A stretch of DNA of 64,000 nt, taken from an uncultured delta proteobacterium (lineage in GTDB: Bacteria; Desulfobacterota; Desulfobulbia; Desulfobulbales; Desulfocapsaceae). Every line of letters begins with the position of its first letter. The stretch's first letter is position 1. A program made the position numbers and the translations under genes. The stretch spans positions 1 through 64,000 of the forward strand of contig CAIQWD010000100.1 in the NCBI GenBank assembly GCA_903875445.1. Direction: 5' to 3'. Shown in pieces: positions 4,304 through 13,933 of the stretch. The notes beneath the pieces are model-generated. The model was not told where the DNA came from, made no database searches, and saw only the letters and a list, made by a program, of their open reading frames with translations.

Positions 4304-6099
<1,796 letters not shown>

Positions 6100-6575
6100 T
6101 GGAGATCGGATTCGGGGTCGGGGTATCTGAGTATTTCTGCTGCATCCCTTCGAGAGTCGTTCTTCGACTATACAAGGATAGGCTGCTGCTGTCAAGCAGA
6201 AAGAATGGGTACATTTCCGGCCCAAGGTGGCAGGTGACGGAAGGTTTCCGCACATTTTGCTCCTGTACTGTCTCTGGTCCGAAATCTGAAATCAGAAAAC
6301 AGCATTGCCAAGCTTTAGCAAATTCGGTGCCATCTGGACGATCTTTCGCTGGAATGGTGCTGGCCTGCCTCCGGGGATAAACAAGAATGAAGTGATTTCT
6401 GTCTACGGAATGGTTGTGCGGAAATACGGAATAGTGGCCCTGAAAAACGAAAATGTTGGTTAGTTTTGCTCGTCGTTGGGATTAAAGAATTGCAGTGTAG
6501 GGAACGGCAGGAGACGATTGCTTTTTTCAATCAGAATGTATACACTGTTTGTATATATTCAACATGGAGAGGATT

Positions 6576-6806
6576 ATGGATACAGCAAAGCTTTTCAAGA
6601 GCGGCAACTCCCAAGCCGTGCGTTTACCGAAGGATTTCAGGCTTCCCGGCCAGAAGGTCAGGATTTTTCGCAGGGGAAATCAGATCATCCTTGAACCCTT
6701 GGAAGTAACCTGGGACGCTTTTTTTGCCTCGCTTGACGATTTTCCCGAGGATTTTATGGAAAATGGACGACAGCAGCCTGATGGGCAGACAAGGGAGTCA
6801 TTTTGA
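6576..6806 (+). CDS. vapB: VapB-type antitoxin (AbrB/SpoVT fold)
   Basis: MDTAKLFKSGNSQAVRLPKDFRLPGQKVRIFRRGNQIILEPL; stop overlaps the downstream PIN gene start. Confidence 0.9.
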   Translation: MDTAKLFKSGNSQAVRLPKDFRLPGQKVRIFRRGNQIILEPLEVTWDAFFASLDDFPEDFMENGRQQPDGQTRESF

Positions 6807-7207
6807 TGCATTTCTTGCTCGATACCAACATCTGCATCTATCTCATCAAGAACCGGCCGCCGGGAGTTCTCGAAAAATTCAAACAGCATCAGCCTTCGGA
6901 GGTTGCGATTTCCACCATTACCCTGTTCGAGCTTGAATACGGAGCCGAAAAAAGCAATTGGAAGCAGCAGTCCCAAAAGGCTCTGAAAAATTTTTTGTCG
7001 CCTCTTGACATCGTTGATCTGGACCGGGCCGCTGCTAATGAAGCGGCTGTTATCCGGGCGAAACTCGAGAAAAAAGGTACACCCATAGGCCCGTATGATA
7101 TACTTATCGCCGGCCTGGCCAGATCCCGTTCAATGACCCTGGTGACCAACGATATTAAGGAATTTTCAAGAGTTGACGGCTTGTTGCTGGAAAATTGGAC
7201 AGAATAA
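6803..7207 (+). CDS. vapC: VapC-type toxin (PIN-domain RNase)
   Basis: MHFLLDTNICIYLIKNRP, ISTITLFELEYGAEKS, GPYDILIAGLARSRSMTLVTNDIKEFSRVDGL: full PIN domain. Confidence 0.93.
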   Translation: MMHFLLDTNICIYLIKNRPPGVLEKFKQHQPSEVAISTITLFELEYGAEKSNWKQQSQKALKNFLSPLDIVDLDRAAANEAAVIRAKLEKKGTPIGPYDILIAGLARSRSMTLVTNDIKEFSRVDGLLLENWTE

Positions 7208-7348
7208 TAATGGTGGCAAGATGCATGCAAGGAAAGCATAGTATATTTTACTGGCCGCATCCGGGACATGACCATCATCCAGCAGATCCGCAGCTACAAG
7301 CAAGGCATGATCCGCCTTATCCAGATATCTCCTTATCTCCTCAGTCAT
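7166..7348 (-). pseudogene. Truncated HEPN-domain protein, N-terminal portion only
   Basis: MTEEIRRYLDKADHALLVAADLLDDGHVPDAASKIYYA is a HEPN N-terminus; similarity stops near 7236, close to the 3' end of vapC. ATGA overlap with the upstream nucleotidyltransferase gene. Confidence 0.75.
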
Positions 7349-7704
7349 ATCGCAATGCCTTCTTGCATAACATTTCGATAAAATGAGAAACCTTTCGCGG
7401 CAGCTGCACGAAACCGATCCTCAGTAAAGACCTTGAGGGAGATCATTGGCTTGAAATCACGATCCCACATCACATTGTAGGCGATCTCATCCAGCATAGA
7501 CTCCAACTCCGGAGTTTTTTCATCTACCAATGCAACCAGATCAAGGTCGGAATCATCGGCCGCATCTCCCCGTACACGCGAACCGTAGAGGATTAACTCC
7601 CGGATATGCGGCAGTACCTCTGTTGGTATTCGTTGCCTCAGTTCTTCAACGATCTCCTGGTCTATTATCCCCTTAATTGCCACCTCACTCTCCTTATTGG
7701 ACAT
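7345..7704 (-). CDS. Minimal nucleotidyltransferase (MNT) domain protein
   Basis: GSRVRGDAADDSDLDLVALV carries the GS-x10-DxD nucleotidyltransferase motif. Confidence 0.85.
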   Translation of the reverse strand: MSNKESEVAIKGIIDQEIVEELRQRIPTEVLPHIRELILYGSRVRGDAADDSDLDLVALVDEKTPELESMLDEIAYNVMWDRDFKPMISLKVFTEDRFRAAAAKGFSFYRNVMQEGIAI

Positions 7705-7758
7705 ACCGCACCTCGTTTAAAATTCGATCCCGTAAGCGCGGTTTAACAGCCTCCTTTT

Positions 7759-7808
7759 GAGATGGGGTCGGACCGAGCTATCTATATGATCGTTCAACAT
7801 TTAAATCC
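7759..7808. repeat. 50-bp dispersed repeat, copy 1
   Basis: 42/50 identical to 9167-9216 by my hand alignment. Confidence 0.75.
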
Positions 7809-7842
7809 CAAAAATACGTGTTTTCCGCTCTTAAATGCAGGA

Positions 7843-7887
7843 TGCACTCTGTGCACCTATAAAACCTGAGATGGTGCACGGAGTGCA
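7843..7887. repeat. Inverted repeat/hairpin with self-palindromic arms
   Basis: TGCACTCTGTGCACC ... GGTGCACGGAGTGCA; 14/15 complementary, with the remaining position a G-T pair. Lies just downstream of the hepT-like gene. Confidence 0.7.
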
Positions 7888-7900
7888 CCCTACACTCGAG

Positions 7901-8263
7901 TTAACTTGAAAGCTCATTGGAATAACTCGCCCTTTTTAACTTTTTCAATTCGTGCAACAACACCGGGATATCATCCTGAATAATACTCCAGAGGACATCG
8001 TTGTCTATTCCCAGATAACCGTGAATCAGTCGGTTACGAGTTGCCACAACCTGTCGCCAGGGGATTGACGAAGCAGGTTCGCGAATTGTATCCGGGATAT
8101 GTGTTGCAGCCTCTCCCAGTAACTCCAGCATTCTTATTGTTGCATCGTATGACTTCTCGTCAGATTCAAATCCCTTTCGATCCAGCCGTTCGGTATAGGA
8201 TAGCACCTTTTCGCAAAATTTGATCATGTCATCCAGATAGAATCTCCATTCCCGTTCAGACAT
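7901..8263 (-). CDS. hepT: HepT-like HEPN toxin (DUF86)
   Basis: MSEREWRFYLDDMIKFCEKVLSYTE... with the RX4HXY motif RNRLIHGY; start overlaps the MNT stop. Confidence 0.88.
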   Translation of the reverse strand: MSEREWRFYLDDMIKFCEKVLSYTERLDRKGFESDEKSYDATIRMLELLGEAATHIPDTIREPASSIPWRQVVATRNRLIHGYLGIDNDVLWSIIQDDIPVLLHELKKLKRASYSNELSS

Positions 8264-8546
8264 AGATCGCCTCGTTTTCGATATATGTCCTAAGCTCGGG
8301 TCGAAGTGCCTTTTCAGTAACCAGGTCGATGCTGCATCCAAAGAGATCCTCCAACATGAACTGAACACCAAAATATTTTGAAGAGGTGGCAGGTCCATCA
8401 AAGGCCACCAGGACATCTACATCGCTTCTCTGGTTGGCATCATCACGGGCCATCGATCCGAACAAGGCCAGGCGGGTAACTCCGAACCGTCCAGTCAATT
8501 CAGGTTTAACCCTGGTAAGTGTATCGAGCGCATCTTGCCGATTCAT
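8256..8546 (-). CDS. mntA: MntA-like nucleotidyltransferase antitoxin
   Basis: LFGSMARDDANQRSDVDVLVAFDG: GS-x10-DxD motif, adjacent to DUF86. Confidence 0.88.
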   Translation of the reverse strand: MNRQDALDTLTRVKPELTGRFGVTRLALFGSMARDDANQRSDVDVLVAFDGPATSSKYFGVQFMLEDLFGCSIDLVTEKALRPELRTYIENEAIYV

Positions 8547-8579
8547 ATCAGTAATTTCCTATTTTCCTCTGATTTTATG

Positions 8580-8618
8580 TATCTATTCAGCACTATTGAC
8601 AAAGTTCCCCCTCCCCTT
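8580..8618. repeat. 39-bp dispersed repeat, copy 1
   Basis: TATCTATTCAGCACTATTGACAAAGTTCCCCCTCCCCTT; 36/39 identical to 56745-56783. Confidence 0.8.
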
Positions 8619-8838
8619 GCGGGAGAGGGGAGCTAAAACCAATCAGACAGAGTACATACACTTGAAATATATTGAATAGTTGCGCAAAAACAAGCATATA
8701 GATTTCGAGATATGGATTTCTGCAAACTGAAAACCCTTGGACTTCATGAAACAAAGTACACTTTAATCGGATGAACCACTTGTCACCACCGATAAACTGC
8801 AGAGGACAACCGAAGAAGGGACCAGCGCCTGCAAACGT

Positions 8839-8907
8839 TCACGTTATTGGTGAGTCCTGATTATTCAGAAAAGAAATACAGGCATTTGTATCTAGCAAAT
8901 ATGTCAT
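8839..8907 (-). pseudogene. Truncated VapC/PIN toxin, first 22 codons only
   Basis: My translation: MTYLLDTNACISFLNNQDSPIT*. It begins with the canonical PIN strand (YLLDTNACISFLN) and overlaps the upstream antitoxin stop by ATGA. Not in the ORF track. Confidence 0.8.
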
Positions 8908-9146
8908 CGTATGGTATCTCGCACTTCATACTCTCCTTGGTTTTCACGAACCAAAGGTGTGCCGGCAAAACAACCGGCAGTCTTTGTAAAAAAGTCTTTG
9001 GGCCATATGTCAACTGTCTCCGGTATTGACCTCATTTCATCTATGGGCATGACAATAACTTCCAGGGTGCGGTTTCTAAAAGCCTTTGGAATTTTTATTG
9101 ATATGCGATCGGAATCAACCTTTTGTATTTTTCTTAACACTTGCAT
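8904..9146 (-). CDS. Probable antitoxin paired with a truncated PIN toxin
   Basis: 80 aa: MQVLRKIQKVDSDRISIKIPKAFRNRTLEVIVMPID...; position and ATGA coupling to the PIN remnant. Confidence 0.65.
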   Translation of the reverse strand: MQVLRKIQKVDSDRISIKIPKAFRNRTLEVIVMPIDEMRSIPETVDIWPKDFFTKTAGCFAGTPLVRENQGEYEVRDTIR

Positions 9147-9166
9147 AGTCTTTTCTGTCCTTTGTT

Positions 9167-9216
9167 GAAATGGGGGCCGACCAAGCTATTTATTTGATCA
9201 TTCAACATTTAGATCC
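9167..9216. repeat. 50-bp dispersed repeat, copy 2
   Basis: See 7759-7808. Confidence 0.75.
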
Positions 9217-9696
9217 ACTAAACTCTACAATCATAGCAGATACCTCCGGGATTTTCTTGCTATTTATCGCGCAAGGTGGACCTTGCGGCATTTCTTCTCC
9301 GATGGTTCCATGGCGCTTTCCTTTGTGTCTTCCGACGCACTCTCTTTACAGGGTTTCTGGTGGTCAAATCCCAACAGCAGGTTGTTTGTACTGACTGAAT
9401 TGCCAAAGATTGTCTATTACTGGGTTTGGCATGGTATGTTGGAGATTGCTGAAGATCCGCAATGGGCTATTGATCTGGAGCGGGGCTATCTGGCCTTTGT
9501 GAAGGCTATGGTTTGCAGATGCTGAATTTCTTGTGTATTTGGGCTGCTCCGGTCTGACCAGCCGACGCTCGCCCAAAAATTTTTAAAATATCCGATATCT
9601 TGATACTGAAACGATAATTTGACTTGGACCTCAGAGATGGGTATTTTAAAAGCATATGGCAATTATTTATCAGTGGAAAAGAAACCGAGGTGTAAC

Positions 9697-9915
9697 ATGC
9701 ACACTACACTGCCTTTAAACGAAATGACAACCACGGAAAAGCTTGTTGTGCTGGATCAGATATGGGAAGATTTGATGCGAAATACAGATGATATCCCATC
9801 TCCTGACTGGCATAAGGAAGTTTTATCAGCTCGCGCCAAACGAGTCGAAAATGGCGAATCGGAATTTATGAACTGGGAAGATGCAAAATCCCGCCTTCGT
9901 GCTGAATTTAAGTGA
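9697..9915 (+). CDS. Addiction module component (RelB-like antitoxin, TIGR02574 type)
   Basis: LPLNEMTTTEKLVVLDQIWEDLMRNTDDIPSPDWHKEVLSARAKRVENGESEFMNWEDAKSRLRAEFK. Confidence 0.85.
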   Translation: MHTTLPLNEMTTTEKLVVLDQIWEDLMRNTDDIPSPDWHKEVLSARAKRVENGESEFMNWEDAKSRLRAEFK

Positions 9916-10052
9916 AAATTAAAATACTTGACGAGGCGCATAATGATTTGGTGGAACAAGAAGTCGTTCAGGTTTATGCGGTTTTAGATTGCAGACGAAA
10001 TCCCAAGGTAAATCATGAACAATTAATTAGGCGGTCTGTGTCAGGATCCTAA
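9912..10052 (+). pseudogene. Internally deleted RelE/ParE-superfamily toxin
   Basis: My translation from GTG 9912: VKIKILDEAHNDLVEQEVVQVYAVLDCRRNPKVNHEQLIRRSVSGS*. The N-terminus KIKILDEAHNDLVE and C-terminus VYAVLDCRRNPK are typical; the core is missing. Confidence 0.75.
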
Positions 10053-10223
10053 TTCCAAGAAAAATACCAGGATTCACAGCACAGGATTCAGCGTTCGCCC
10101 CAGCAGGAATTTGCGAAATTACTTGGTGTCTCACCACACACACTTCAAGAGTGGGAACAAAATCGACGTCAGCCGTCTGGTGCTGCGAAGTCACTGATAA
10201 ATCCACGCAAGCGGTACTCTTGA
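10053..10223 (+). pseudogene. C-terminal fragment of an XRE/HigA-type HTH antitoxin
   Basis: My translation: FQEKYQDSQHRIQRSPQQEFAKLLGVSPHTLQEWEQNRRQPSGAAKSLINPRKRYS*; QQEFAKLLGVSPHTLQEWEQNRRQPSGAAKSL is a clear HTH_XRE segment. Confidence 0.8.
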
Positions 10224-10256
10224 TTTCATCAATGAGCGTTCCACTTGCGGTGACAT

Positions 10257-10463
10257 TCATGCGACAGAACTATACATTTCTTGAAACGAGAATTCCTGCA
10301 ACCGTGCATTAACCCGCGCATGTTCGATTGTCATGCTCACCGGATTACCTTGCCGATCCAAATCAATATAAATGTTTTCGCTGAGTTCCTTTGTTTCCAC
10401 CACCTCATTTTCAGTGAACTCAACCAGCGCAGTATCGGTATCCGAAAAATATCTTACTTTCAT
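10257..10463 (-). CDS. DUF2283 family protein (candidate antitoxin)
   Basis: MKVRYFSDTDTALVEFTENEVVETKELSENIYIDLDRQGNPVSMTIEHA. Confidence 0.8.
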   Translation of the reverse strand: MKVRYFSDTDTALVEFTENEVVETKELSENIYIDLDRQGNPVSMTIEHARVNARLQEFSFQEMYSSVA

Positions 10464-10702
10464 ATTTGGCTCTCCTTAAATGACCTGTCAAAGAAGGCAT
10501 TATGTATCGTTTCACCGTCTTCTAAAACAATGACTCTCAGATATTTGTTCTCTTCCTCAATCCAAGCCCATTTCCGTATTCTTCCATCGGATTGGATTAC
10601 AATCTTCTCTGGAGACTGAAGGACATGCAGGATCCATTCATCCCTTATTGCAAACCGGTCGGGTCGTTGTCTCGTATGCTCGAAATAGTGCGTTACCTTC
10701 AT
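10460..10702 (-). CDS. DUF4258-like small protein (candidate toxin partner of DUF2283)
   Basis: HYFEHTRQRPDRFAIRDEWILHVLQSPEKIVIQSDGRIRKWAWIEEENKYLRVIVLEDGETIHNAFFDR; 4-bp overlap with DUF2283. Confidence 0.65.
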   Translation of the reverse strand: MKVTHYFEHTRQRPDRFAIRDEWILHVLQSPEKIVIQSDGRIRKWAWIEEENKYLRVIVLEDGETIHNAFFDRSFKESQI

Positions 10703-10726
10703 GGGACCATATCGCCAAAATTGTAC

Positions 10727-10930
10727 TTATAACTTGTCATATTCGGCGTTTTCCGGGTTATCCCAAACTTTCGCAAACAATTGCGCAGATAATCGGCCAG
10801 CCCACTTGACCAAGCCATCCTCTTCGTTACGAAGCCTTAAAAACTCAACAACGTCCTCGATTTCGGCCACATTTTCCGATGGCAGCATATAAATTTTGTC
10901 CAATAAATCCTGCCTACGCAGGGTCTGCAT
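10727..10930 (-). CDS. Small antitoxin-like protein
   Basis: MQTLRRQDLLDKIYMLPSENVAEIEDVVEFLRLRNEEDGLVKWAGRLSAQLFAKVWDNPENAEYDKL; the AKVWDNPENAEYD tail resembles antitoxins that precede MazF/PemK-type toxins. Confidence 0.6.
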   Translation of the reverse strand: MQTLRRQDLLDKIYMLPSENVAEIEDVVEFLRLRNEEDGLVKWAGRLSAQLFAKVWDNPENAEYDKL

Positions 10931-11138
10931 AGTTTACCTCCTGATTTCGGTCCGGGTGGCCGAAGTCTTTTAGGATCGCGACAAAAATCTCTGTTTTCAG
11001 CCAATATTCTATGTCACTAATGTAGCACAAGTATATATCACAAGCAAGGTTCAAGACTTGGGCTTCGAAGTTGTAAATCAAGAAAGTCTATAGGGCAGGC
11101 TTGGAAGATGTTAGTGTAAGAGCGATAGGATGATGTTT

Positions 11139-12032
11139 TTACTTGCTATTTATAAACAACTGTATCACCGGTGCCGCGTCCGGGGTGTCGGGGGCAATGC
11201 CCTTTACCACCTCGAGGTCTGCCGAAACTCTCCAGGCGATTTCCAAGGCCGCGTAAAGATAACTGTTTGTCATTTGGGAAAGATACCACGGGGGTTGCCT
11301 TTCAAGTATATACCCCTTTTGTACCGAATCCTGAAGGATGTAGCTGTCATCTATTTTTGCCAGCACCCGGGCCTGCGCCAGTGCATCGCCCTTCCTGCCG
11401 GAAGTGAGGTAATGAAGGGCAAGGGCATATCGCAGCGGGGCGTTCACCGGATAAGCGCTTGCCGCTTTTTCGAACTCTGCGGACGCCGGCCCCGGTTCGC
11501 CGCGGTTATCGTACAGCAGTCCGAGGGCCAGGTGAACATCGGGGTTGGTGGGCTCGAGTGCGACTGCCCGCTGGAGGTGATAGAGCGCCTTGTCTGATGC
11601 GTCAGAGGGTGAGATGGCGTTGGTTGGTATGGGGGCGTTCAGGGATTGCATGATCTCCGACCACTTTCCTAGGCGGTTATACAGGTCGGCGAGGGCGCTG
11701 TGGTAAAGGGACCGCGACGGGGCGAGGGTAACGGCTTTTTGGAGGGCGTCGATGGCTGCAAGGTAGGCGGGCATTGATTGTTCGGAAATGAGCATTACAT
11801 CGAGGTCTTCTGTGGTTTTGTCGTCTAGGAGGCTGGTGGTTTTTCGGTAGTAGTAGTCGGAGGCTAGGTCTCGGAGGGGGAAGGTTAGGAGGAGGACGGA
11901 GGACAGAAGGCAGAGGACGGTTAAGAGGAGAGGACGGGTTAAGGCAGAGGACGGAGGACGGGTAAGGGCAGAGGACGGAGGGCGGATAACAGAGGGCGGA
12001 GGACGGAGGGCGGAGGACGGTTTAGGGTTCAT
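11139..12032 (-). CDS. TPR-repeat membrane-anchored protein of the EPS locus
   Basis: TPR motifs (ALYHLQRAVALEPTNPDVHLALGLLYDNRGEPGPASAEFEKAA); start at MNPKPSS with ATGA overlap to the upstream gene. Confidence 0.75.
   Translation of the reverse strand: MNPKPSSALRPPPSVIRPPSSALTRPPSSALTRPLLLTVLCLLSSVLLLTFPLRDLASDYYYRKTTSLLDDKTTEDLDVMLISEQSMPAYLAAIDALQKAVTLAPSRSLYHSALADLYNRLGKWSEIMQSLNAPIPTNAISPSDASDKALYHLQRAVALEPTNPDVHLALGLLYDNRGEPGPASAEFEKAASAYPVNAPLRYALALHYLTSGRKGDALAQARVLAKIDDSYILQDSVQKGYILERQPPWYLSQMTNSYLYAALEIAWRVSADLEVVKGIAPDTPDAAPVIQLFINSK
11884..12023. repeat. Purine-rich low-complexity repeat tract (GGACGGAGGACGG / GGGCAGAGGACGG / GGATAACAGAGGGCGG)
   Basis: Direct reading; lies inside the TPR CDS and encodes PSSALRPPPSVIRPPSSALTRPPSSALTRP. 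Confidence 0.9.
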
Positions 12033-12418
12033 TTTTGGGGGCGGTGGCAGAAGGGTTGGGGGGTTTTTATCATGCTGCCTAGCATTCTGCCGATTTCTTG
12101 GCATTTTTGGTTGAGCTTTTGGTGGATTGGTGCGTCGATATAATGACAGGCCAATGCGGTATCGAGCCAGTGTTGGGTTTCAGCCTGTTCTGAATCTGCA
12201 TCGGTCAGTTTGCTGACAAAATGTTGTTCATAGCGTCGTTTTTGCCAGGCTTCGGCAAGATTTGCACCGATAGCACGTGAAGATCTTCGCATCTGATCGG
12301 TCAAGGAATACATTTCATCTTTGGGGAATGTTTTTGTAATCACGAAGATTTCCTGTTGCAATGCAAAGGCTGCCTGATAAACTCGCAATTCGTGGAAGCT
12401 ATCAATACGATCTGTCAT
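12029..12418 (-). CDS. Four-helix bundle protein (23S rRNA intervening-sequence protein-like, TIGR02436)
   Basis: FHELRVYQAAFALQQEIFVITKTFPKDEMYSLTDQMRRSSRAIGANLAEAWQKR. Confidence 0.92.
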   Translation of the reverse strand: MTDRIDSFHELRVYQAAFALQQEIFVITKTFPKDEMYSLTDQMRRSSRAIGANLAEAWQKRRYEQHFVSKLTDADSEQAETQHWLDTALACHYIDAPIHQKLNQKCQEIGRMLGSMIKTPQPFCHRPQK

Positions 12419-12424
12419 TGTTTT

Positions 12425-13804
12425 TTATGTTTGATAGCTGCCCACAATGGCATCTAGCCGTTCCACCAAATAGAGGGGAAGGGAAATTAATGTATATTTT
12501 ACCTGTTGGCGTTGTTTGTTCATGGTGATAACAGTATCTATCTGATTCACAGCAGGCAGTTGTGTGTCAAAGCGGATGGCAAGTGGGGCCTGCTTCATAC
12601 CCATAAATTGATGCAGGGATTTCAAAGTGCCGGTGGTGCCGGATTTAACCTCTATGGGAATTATTTTTCCCCGCAGCCCAATGACAAAATCCAGTTCGGC
12701 GTTGGCCGAGCGTCCTTCGCGCAACCAATAATTTAATTCACGGTTTGGTTTATCCGCCAGCATGGCTTGTAAATGTTGTCCTATAAATTGTTCAGCAATA
12801 GCCCCCTGGTTAATAAGCTTTGTGTCATTCATTTGTGAGATACTGCGCCAGTCCAAACCACAAATCGCATTCATCAGTCCAACATCAAGGAAGAGCAGTT
12901 TGTAAATTTTTTCCTCAAGATCAGCCTGCAACGGCAGACCAGAGCAATGACTATGGACCACTTTGCCAACTACACGAGCCATTGTCAGGAGATCGATATC
13001 CTTTTTTATGGTAACACTCTGGTCTTGAGCCGAAATATTGGAGTATTTGATTTTTACGCCCACATTTCTTGCGGCAAAATTAAAGACATTCAGCATCCGA
13101 TTCTGATTTCTGGAACCGGCATATTTGGGAAAATCATCTCGATAAGTCTCGATAATAGAATTATGCACTTCGCTTACATCTTTATAACTATGACTCTCGG
13201 CAAAAACGGCCACTGCTTCCGGCATGCCGCCGATAGAGTAATAAGAACGCAGTAAATGCAATAATCGTTGATGGACAATATCTCCTATTTCCTGACCTGG
13301 TTGGTAATTATCTATAAAATTCTTCAGAAGTTCCTCGTCAAGTGCCAGCAGGAACTCGCTGAAAGTCATGGGGCCCATGTGTAAATACTGAATCCTTCCC
13401 ACAGGCATGGAAAAAGAATGGTCTCTCAGGGCAAATTCCAATAAAGATCCAGCGCAGACCACCGGAAGTTCAGGCATATCTTCATAAAAATAGCGCAGCG
13501 CAGGAATGGCCTCTGGAACGGCTTGGATTTCATCAAGAAACAAAAGGATATCCTTCCCAATGCTTCCCATGTTCGGCAGAAATTCTATTTGTTGAAGAAT
13601 GTGTTCAGGGGCCTTGCCGGAAAAAATGGATGACAGCTCAGGATGACGTTCCAGATTAACATTTCGTAAAGAGAGCTGATGTTGCTTGGCGAACAATTCT
13701 ACCAGTGTCGATTTGCCGACCTGTCCGGCACCACGAATAACAAGAGGTTTGCGATTTTTATTTTGCAGCCAGGTAGAGAGGAATTGTAATTGTTGTCGTT
13801 GCAT
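12425..13804 (-). CDS. AAA-family ATPase with DUF4143
   Basis: MQRQQLQFLSTWLQNKNRKPLVIRGAGQVGKSTLVELF (Walker A), ILLFLDEIQ (Walker B), C-terminal DUF4143 (ELDFVIGLRGKIIPIEVKSG). Start taken at MQRQQ near 13804. Confidence 0.9.
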   Translation of the reverse strand: MQRQQLQFLSTWLQNKNRKPLVIRGAGQVGKSTLVELFAKQHQLSLRNVNLERHPELSSIFSGKAPEHILQQIEFLPNMGSIGKDILLFLDEIQAVPEAIPALRYFYEDMPELPVVCAGSLLEFALRDHSFSMPVGRIQYLHMGPMTFSEFLLALDEELLKNFIDNYQPGQEIGDIVHQRLLHLLRSYYSIGGMPEAVAVFAESHSYKDVSEVHNSIIETYRDDFPKYAGSRNQNRMLNVFNFAARNVGVKIKYSNISAQDQSVTIKKDIDLLTMARVVGKVVHSHCSGLPLQADLEEKIYKLLFLDVGLMNAICGLDWRSISQMNDTKLINQGAIAEQFIGQHLQAMLADKPNRELNYWLREGRSANAELDFVIGLRGKIIPIEVKSGTTGTLKSLHQFMGMKQAPLAIRFDTQLPAVNQIDTVITMNKQRQQVKYTLISLPLYLVERLDAIVGSYQT

Positions 13805-13933
13805 TGAAGTGGACGCTCCTTTCTTATTGTGATACCGCAACACACCAATTATACAATAGTATGGTTATTGTTTCAATGGTGTGTTTCCTTTTGGCGTCTA
13901 GGTTGATAAGATATTACTTGCTACTGACAACAA

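What the first reader, a model, noticed from the sequence alone, without database searches (positions are those of the whole stretch)
6549..10930. Toxin-antitoxin island where the toxin is the decayed half
I count seven two-gene modules plus a stray HTH fragment in about 4.4 kb. Modules: vapBC (intact), MNT/HEPN (HEPN truncated), mntA-hepT (intact), antitoxin/PIN (PIN reduced to 22 codons), RelB-like/ParE-like (toxin internally deleted), DUF2283/DUF4258 (intact), antitoxin/possible MazF (only a few toxin codons left). In four of seven the antitoxin or antitoxin-like gene reads through intact while the toxin is broken. That pattern could reflect relaxed selection on toxins, or selection to keep antitoxins as anti-addiction guards or regulators. 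The island lies inside a surface-glycan locus, so it may mark a rearrangement or integration hotspot.
Basis: partly seen in the sequence, partly recalled or inferred. Interest (0 to 1): 0.75.

Follow-up and report, generated by a model that had tools for sequence, protein, structure and literature searches.

The report
Toxin-antitoxin graveyard in a glycan locus
A 4.4-kb stretch of bacterial chromosome holds seven small toxin-antitoxin gene pairs, four of which have lost the toxin but kept the antitoxin; related genomes show the same one-sided loss, which fits the known rule that only the toxin can be lost safely, so no special protective role needs to be assumed.

Summary
Seven two-gene modules lie at 6576-10930, and in four (MNT/HEPN, short antitoxin/PIN, Unstab_antitox/ParE, DUF2281/MazF) the antitoxin or MNT gene is open while the toxin is a stub. 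Full-length relatives place the breaks: HEPN after ~38 of 127 codons, PIN after ~20 codons, ParE with ~50 residues deleted internally, MazF after ~16 of 117 codons. The stubs are homologous remnants, not chance.

The same direction of loss recurs in other genomes of the order, with different lesions: 10 one-sided lesions in the MazF and ParE families hit the toxin, none the antitoxin. This fits loss limited by viability, helped here by the toxin being the downstream gene in every broken module. I found no sign of extra selection on the retained antitoxins. Dead stubs are as well preserved as their partners (HEPN stub and MNT both pN 0.17 against the same homologue). No cognate MazF or ParE turned up elsewhere in the genome, and plasmids carry almost no relatives. 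Other genes decay here too: an HTH gene, gmd, and an ISL3 transposase beside the PIN break. This is an ordinary, well-resolved TA graveyard.

The parts
6576..6806 (+). vapB antitoxin, intact
   Evidence: NCBIfam NF047862 103.9 bits (cut-off 100), PF04014
6806..7207 (+). vapC toxin (tRNA(fMet)-type), intact
   Evidence: NCBIfam NF047863 171.4 bits (cut-off 140), PF01850
7166..7348 (-). HEPN toxin stub; homologous part 7236-7348 (~38 codons), rest is read-through into vapC
   Evidence: 67.5% identity to 127-aa HEPN of L028, breakpoint at 7236
7345..7704 (-). MNT nucleotidyltransferase, open, GSX10DXD present
   Evidence: PF01909 35.3 bits; 71% identical to L028 MNT
7757..7808 (.). 52-nt repeat, copy 1, upstream of the MNT gene
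   Evidence: 85% identical to 9165-9216
7901..8263 (-). hepT toxin, intact, RX4HXY (RNRLIHGY)
   Evidence: PF01934 94.2 bits
8256..8546 (-). mntA antitoxin, intact, GSX10DXD
   Evidence: PF01909 57.3 bits
8685..8774 (+). C-terminal 29 codons of an ISL3-family transposase (remnant)
   Evidence: aligns to the last residues of the 406-aa transposase in L027; sister transposase L024 is PF01610
8839..8907 (-). PIN toxin stub, 22 codons, ATGA overlap with the antitoxin
   Evidence: translation and alignment
8904..9146 (-). short antitoxin, open; tail resembles antitoxins that precede PIN genes
   Evidence: remote relatives L037, L038, L039
9165..9216 (.). 52-nt repeat, copy 2, upstream of the antitoxin gene
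9697..9915 (+). Unstab_antitox antitoxin, intact (profile 1-63/63)
   Evidence: PF09720 57.2 bits
9912..10052 (+). ParE toxin stub: start (9912-9956) joined in frame to the C-terminal VQVYAVLDCRRNP (9966-10004), middle deleted
   Evidence: profile positions 1-14 and 70-90 of 92
10053..10223 (+). HTH (HigA-like) fragment without start or partner; HTH_3 match at about 10101-10181
   Evidence: PF01381 26.2 bits, positions 12-38/55
10257..10463 (-). DUF2283 protein, intact, putative antitoxin
   Evidence: PF10049 58.2 bits; pair conserved in L011, L015
10460..10702 (-). DUF4258 (RelE/ParE superfamily) putative toxin, intact; ATG overlaps the stop of the MazF stub
   Evidence: PF14076 16.6 bits, below cut-off; 72% identical to L011
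10699..10749 (-). MazF toxin stub MPNMTSYKYNFGDMVP*
   Evidence: same start position as full MazF in L064-L066
10727..10930 (-). DUF2281-like antitoxin, intact (67/67)
   Evidence: PF10047 15.8 bits, below cut-off; 45-57% identical relatives that precede MazF

Best explanation
The region is a mosaic of horizontally acquired toxin-antitoxin modules decaying by junction deletions, insertions and one internal deletion. A lesion in the toxin is survivable and leaves the antitoxin as a harmless orphan; a lesion in the antitoxin alone frees the toxin and is lost from the population. In all four broken modules the toxin is also the downstream gene, so rearrangements that eat in from the 3' side reach it first: vapBC abuts the HEPN break, DUF4258-DUF2283 abuts the MazF break, an ISL3 transposase tail lies beside the PIN break. 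The orphan antitoxins are open mainly because the toxin losses are recent on the scale of sequence divergence. Shown: modules, stubs, breakpoints, recurrence in other genomes, equal preservation of stub and partner. Inferred: horizontal origin, the viability filter, order of events. vapBC, mntA-hepT and DUF4258-DUF2283 look intact and probably still work.
For: Stubs and breakpoints. The same one-sided loss with other lesions elsewhere in the order: MazF broken beside an intact antitoxin in L061, L063, L067, L083, L094; ParE in L041, L042, L115, L117, L121; PIN next to the relatives of the 8904-9146 antitoxin in L037 and L039; a frameshifted HepT beside intact MntA in the same genome, L197. With intact-toxin queries run over the same genomes, no pair had an intact toxin and a recognisably broken antitoxin; if lesions fell by gene length alone, 10 of 10 in the toxin has P = 0.006. 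HEPN stub and MNT show equal pN (0.17) and the same third-position bias against L028; ParE and MazF stubs are no more eroded than their antitoxins. Other genes decay too: the HTH fragment, gmd, transposase tail.
Against: Antitoxin query loci were capped at 20 and toxin loci at 30, so the tally is a sample, and some lesions in draft genomes may be sequencing errors. Synonymous sites are saturated in nearly all comparisons, so the age of the losses is only bounded. Four of seven modules here have lost the toxin, while 13 of 15 other PIN loci in the genome keep a full PIN with a short ORF just upstream, so the island is richer in losses than the genome background; why is unexplained.
Confidence: 0.8

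Rival explanations
1. The orphan antitoxins are kept by selection as anti-addiction guards: they neutralise homologous toxins on incoming plasmids or phages.
For: All four retained genes are open with no stop. The DUF2281 antitoxin is intact in all eight full loci seen while its MazF is broken in four and trimmed in a fifth. The idea has precedent (PMC2654758, read).
Against: Dead stubs are as well preserved as the antitoxins, so intactness needs no selection. Plasmid collection: two remote relatives of DUF2281, one of Unstab, none of this MNT. Antitoxins of type II systems are usually specific for close homologues.
Confidence: 0.08
2. Partner swap: the DUF2281 antitoxin now leads a coupled operon with DUF4258-DUF2283 and has been kept to regulate or neutralise the new neighbour.
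For: Four overlapping reading frames on the - strand from 10930 to 10257; the stop of the MazF stub overlaps the ATG of DUF4258. In L015 the DUF4258-DUF2283 pair stands behind an unrelated gene (ftsH-like), so the window's arrangement is new.
Against: One genome only. DUF4258 already has its own conserved partner, DUF2283. Translational coupling could be a by-product of the junction.
Confidence: 0.07
3. The broken toxins are assembly or sequencing errors.
For: The genome is a draft in 117 contigs.
Against: The lesions are large junctions or deletions, not single-base shifts; they sit inside a 94.7-kb contig; each is a different event; the joined sequences are themselves real modules.
Confidence: 0.03

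Closest known systems
Degenerating chromosomal TA loci (ccdO157 in E. coli; Mine et al. 2009, cited in PMC7167474 and PMC2654758)
   Same: Chromosomal TA loci lost by deletion and nonsense mutation, with drift towards inactive toxins
   Different: Here several unrelated families decay side by side in one 4.4-kb mosaic
Orphan antitoxins in Klebsiella pneumoniae (PMC7192599) and E. coli (PMC10790755)
   Same: Antitoxins without a functional toxin are common; degraded TA loci are one proposed source
   Different: Here the toxin stubs are still readable, so the breakpoints can be placed
Type VII MntA-HepT (PMC7641770)
   Same: 8256-8546 and 7901-8263 have the GSX10DXD and RX4HXY signatures and the MNT-HEPN order
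   Different: Nothing unusual; the second pair (MNT with PF05168 HEPN) belongs to Class II, whose TA status that paper leaves open
DUF4258 toxins of the RelE/ParE superfamily (PMC11980606)
   Same: 10460-10702 is a DUF4258 protein next to a small partner
   Different: The partner here is DUF2283 and lies downstream; that review lists A/T order, whereas an E. coli survey found DUF4258 partners strictly downstream (PMC10790755)

Membership tests
VapBC (tRNA(fMet)-specific) | VapC equivalog score and adjacent VapB | tested here: met
   NF047863 171.4 bits vs cut-off 140; NF047862 103.9 vs 100
VapBC (tRNA(fMet)-specific) | cleaves initiator tRNA | not testable with these tools
   needs an in vitro assay
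Type VII MntA-HepT | PF01909 with GSX10DXD next to PF01934 with RX4HXY | tested here: met
   motif definition from PMC7641770
Type VII MntA-HepT | NCBIfam equivalog cut-offs | tested here: not met
   NF047752 43 bits and NF047751 39.8 bits, both below 60; Pfam cut-offs and motifs are met
Class II HEPN/MNT pair (7166-7704) | PF05168 HEPN next to a GSX10DXD MNT | tested here: not met
   MNT present, HEPN only 38 codons (13.1 bits, cut-off 22); the homologue L028 meets it
MazF/PemK module (10699-10930) | full PemK/MazF domain behind the antitoxin | tested here: not met
   16-codon stub; relatives L064-L066 have the full gene
ParE module with Unstab_antitox | full ParE domain behind PF09720 | tested here: not met
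   antitoxin 1-63/63, ParE 1-14 and 70-90 of 92
VapC-type PIN module (8839-9146) | full PIN domain behind the antitoxin | tested here: not met
   22-codon stub
Anti-addiction module | homologous toxin carried by plasmids | tested here: inconclusive
   almost no plasmid relatives of three of the antitoxins; the collection may miss plasmids of this lineage
Anti-addiction module | orphan antitoxin neutralises that toxin | not testable with these tools
   needs co-expression

The most novel reading that the evidence does not exclude
The DUF2281-type antitoxin of this MazF subfamily is repeatedly freed from its toxin and kept: of eight loci found in the order all eight antitoxins are intact while MazF is broken by different lesions in four and trimmed in a fifth, so the antitoxin may have a function of its own, for example as a regulator or guard.
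Probability: 0.1. Interest if true: 0.55.

Novelty: new member of a known kind. Interest (0 to 1): 0.3.

Why it matters
Orphan antitoxins are often read as evidence for a guard or regulator role. This locus allows a direct check, because the toxin stubs are still present: they are as well preserved as the antitoxins, so recent loss plus a viability filter is enough. The recurrence of the same direction of loss in several families across one order gives a simple null model that a claim of antitoxin retention should beat.

Tried and rejected
1. Empty-site search: the sugar transferase and TPR genes were searched in 60 genomes of the family and five best loci were fetched; the glycan loci are not syntenic, so the island's outer limits stay open.
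2. Integron-cassette idea: considered because of the 52-nt repeats; rejected since modules lie on both strands and the repeat lies upstream of only two of them. In G018 copies lie by a RAYT-like transposase gene and by DUF1016-like genes.
3. dN/dS of retained antitoxins: synonymous sites saturate against nearly all homologues, so only pN and codon-position patterns were used.
4. Anti-addiction by plasmid homologues: nearly none found.
5. Promoter scan: seven promoter-like sites against 9.1 in shuffles, so uninformative.
7. No literature hit for a clustered set of intact antitoxins with broken toxins in the terms tried; the Mine 2009 paper is not held.

Full report
What is there. The window lies on a 94.7-kb contig of a 4.9-Mb draft genome. 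Between a bacterial sugar transferase gene (4660-6102, PF02397) and a TPR gene (11139-12104), inside a polysaccharide locus with flippase, O-antigen ligase, CpsB/CapC, Wzz/kinase and export genes, seven two-gene modules occupy 6576-10930: vapBC; MNT/HEPN; mntA-hepT; a short antitoxin/PIN; Unstab_antitox/ParE; DUF4258-DUF2283; DUF2281/MazF. A partial HTH gene lies at 10053-10223.

The four broken toxins. HEPN: relatives L028 and L030 carry 127- and 123-aa HEPN proteins directly behind MNT; the window copy matches for 38 codons and stops matching at 7236, 28 bp from the vapC stop. PIN: 22 codons, start overlapping the antitoxin stop by ATGA, with an ISL3 transposase tail about 65 bp beyond its end. 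ParE: the first 14 and the 70th-90th of 92 profile positions are joined in one 46-codon frame, so about 55 positions were deleted. MazF: 16 codons, then a stop that overlaps the ATG of DUF4258; relatives have 115-117 aa from the same start position.

Is the bias real? Two toxin queries and two antitoxin queries were run over the same 194 genomes of the order. In the DUF2281/MazF subfamily eight complete antitoxins were found; MazF is full in three, trimmed in one, and broken by different lesions in four including the window. In other MazF pairs two more toxins are broken beside an open antitoxin, L083 and L094. In the Unstab/ParE family about 26 pairs are intact, five outside the window have a broken ParE beside an intact antitoxin, and five antitoxins have no ParE at all. 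I found no pair with an intact toxin and a recognisably broken antitoxin; one ParE hit (L126) has no recognisable Unstab neighbour and may use another family. Ten of ten one-sided lesions in the toxin has P = 0.006 if lesions fall by length. Remote relatives of the 8904-9146 antitoxin also sit next to broken PIN genes, L037 and L039, and the same genome has a frameshifted HepT beside an open MntA, L197. So the direction of loss is general. It is what the biology of these systems predicts: a free toxin harms its host, a free antitoxin does not.

Is there selection to keep the antitoxins? If the orphans were selected while the stubs drift, the stubs should be more eroded. They are not. Against L028 the HEPN stub has pN 0.17 and 25 of 37 changes at third positions; its MNT neighbour has pN 0.17 and 68 of 102. 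The ParE pieces (dN 0.34 and 0.15 against L043) and the MazF stub (dN 0.19 against L066) are no worse than their antitoxins (0.56 and 0.36). The stub alignments are short (12 to 38 codons) and dS is mostly saturated, so this shows that the losses are recent relative to the divergence from these homologues; it cannot exclude recent selection. None of the retained stub pieces holds a stop or frameshift, so the open state of the antitoxins does not by itself need purifying selection.

Guard function. No match to this MazF or ParE subfamily was found in the genome itself, and plasmids hold two remote relatives of DUF2281, one of Unstab and none of the MNT. This weakens but does not exclude anti-addiction.

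Geometry and mechanism. In each broken module the toxin is the downstream gene, and three of the four breaks lie at or near a junction with another element (vapBC; DUF4258-DUF2283; an ISL3 tail). Modules arriving or deletions entering from the 3' side therefore reach toxins first. Decay is not confined to toxins: the HTH fragment, gmd (4304-4612, two GDP-mannose dehydratase ends joined with the middle lost) and the transposase tail are remnants too. In the same genome a vapC fragment without its N-terminus and without vapB follows an MNT gene on contig C56.

What it is not. It is not a new defence system or a new TA type: the three complete modules are known families. The wider genome is not shedding its toxins: 13 of 15 other PIN loci have a full PIN and a short ORF just upstream. 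Published work already describes decaying TA loci and abundant orphan antitoxins and proposes both drift and guard roles.

Verdict. Observation confirmed, title accurate, guard interpretation unsupported. A mosaic of TA modules with toxin-first decay, ordinary in kind, useful as a clean example with readable breakpoints.

Noticed in passing
window 4304-4612 (-): gmd (GDP-mannose 4,6-dehydratase) remnant: the first ~40 residues are joined in frame to the C-terminal end, with the middle lost, so a non-toxin gene next to the island decayed by the same kind of internal deletion as ParE.
   Followed up: partly
window 7757-7808 and 9165-9216; L147 4988, 6488, 7954, 9180: A 52-80-nt repeat lies upstream of two modules here and recurs four times in 4.3 kb in another genus of the family, next to a RAYT-like transposase gene and DUF1016-like genes.
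   Followed up: partly
window 7839-7923: A palindromic repeat (GGATGCACTCTGTGCACC...GGTGCACGGAGTGCACCC) with 81-88% identical copies elsewhere in this genome and in several relatives.
   Followed up: no
G000:C56:113173-113877 (L002, L190, L198): A vapC fragment lacking its first ~30 residues and its vapB directly follows an MNT gene near a contig end: a toxin remnant without antitoxin in the same genome.
   Followed up: partly
G000:C116 near 10881-11123 (L197): HepT looks frameshifted next to an open MntA.
   Followed up: partly
window 11930-13843: A 23S rRNA intervening-sequence-type protein and a DUF4143 ATPase lie between the O-antigen ligase and TPR genes; both of these encode a similar low-complexity stretch (SSALRxPPSVIR...RPL) from a repeated GGACGGAGGAC-like DNA.
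   Followed up: no
window 9283-9525 (+): An 80-codon ORF with no Pfam match between modules; possibly another remnant.
   Followed up: no
L009 (G003:C13 151500-155120): Three MNT genes in tandem in a genome of the same genus, one 80% identical to the window's mntA.
   Followed up: no
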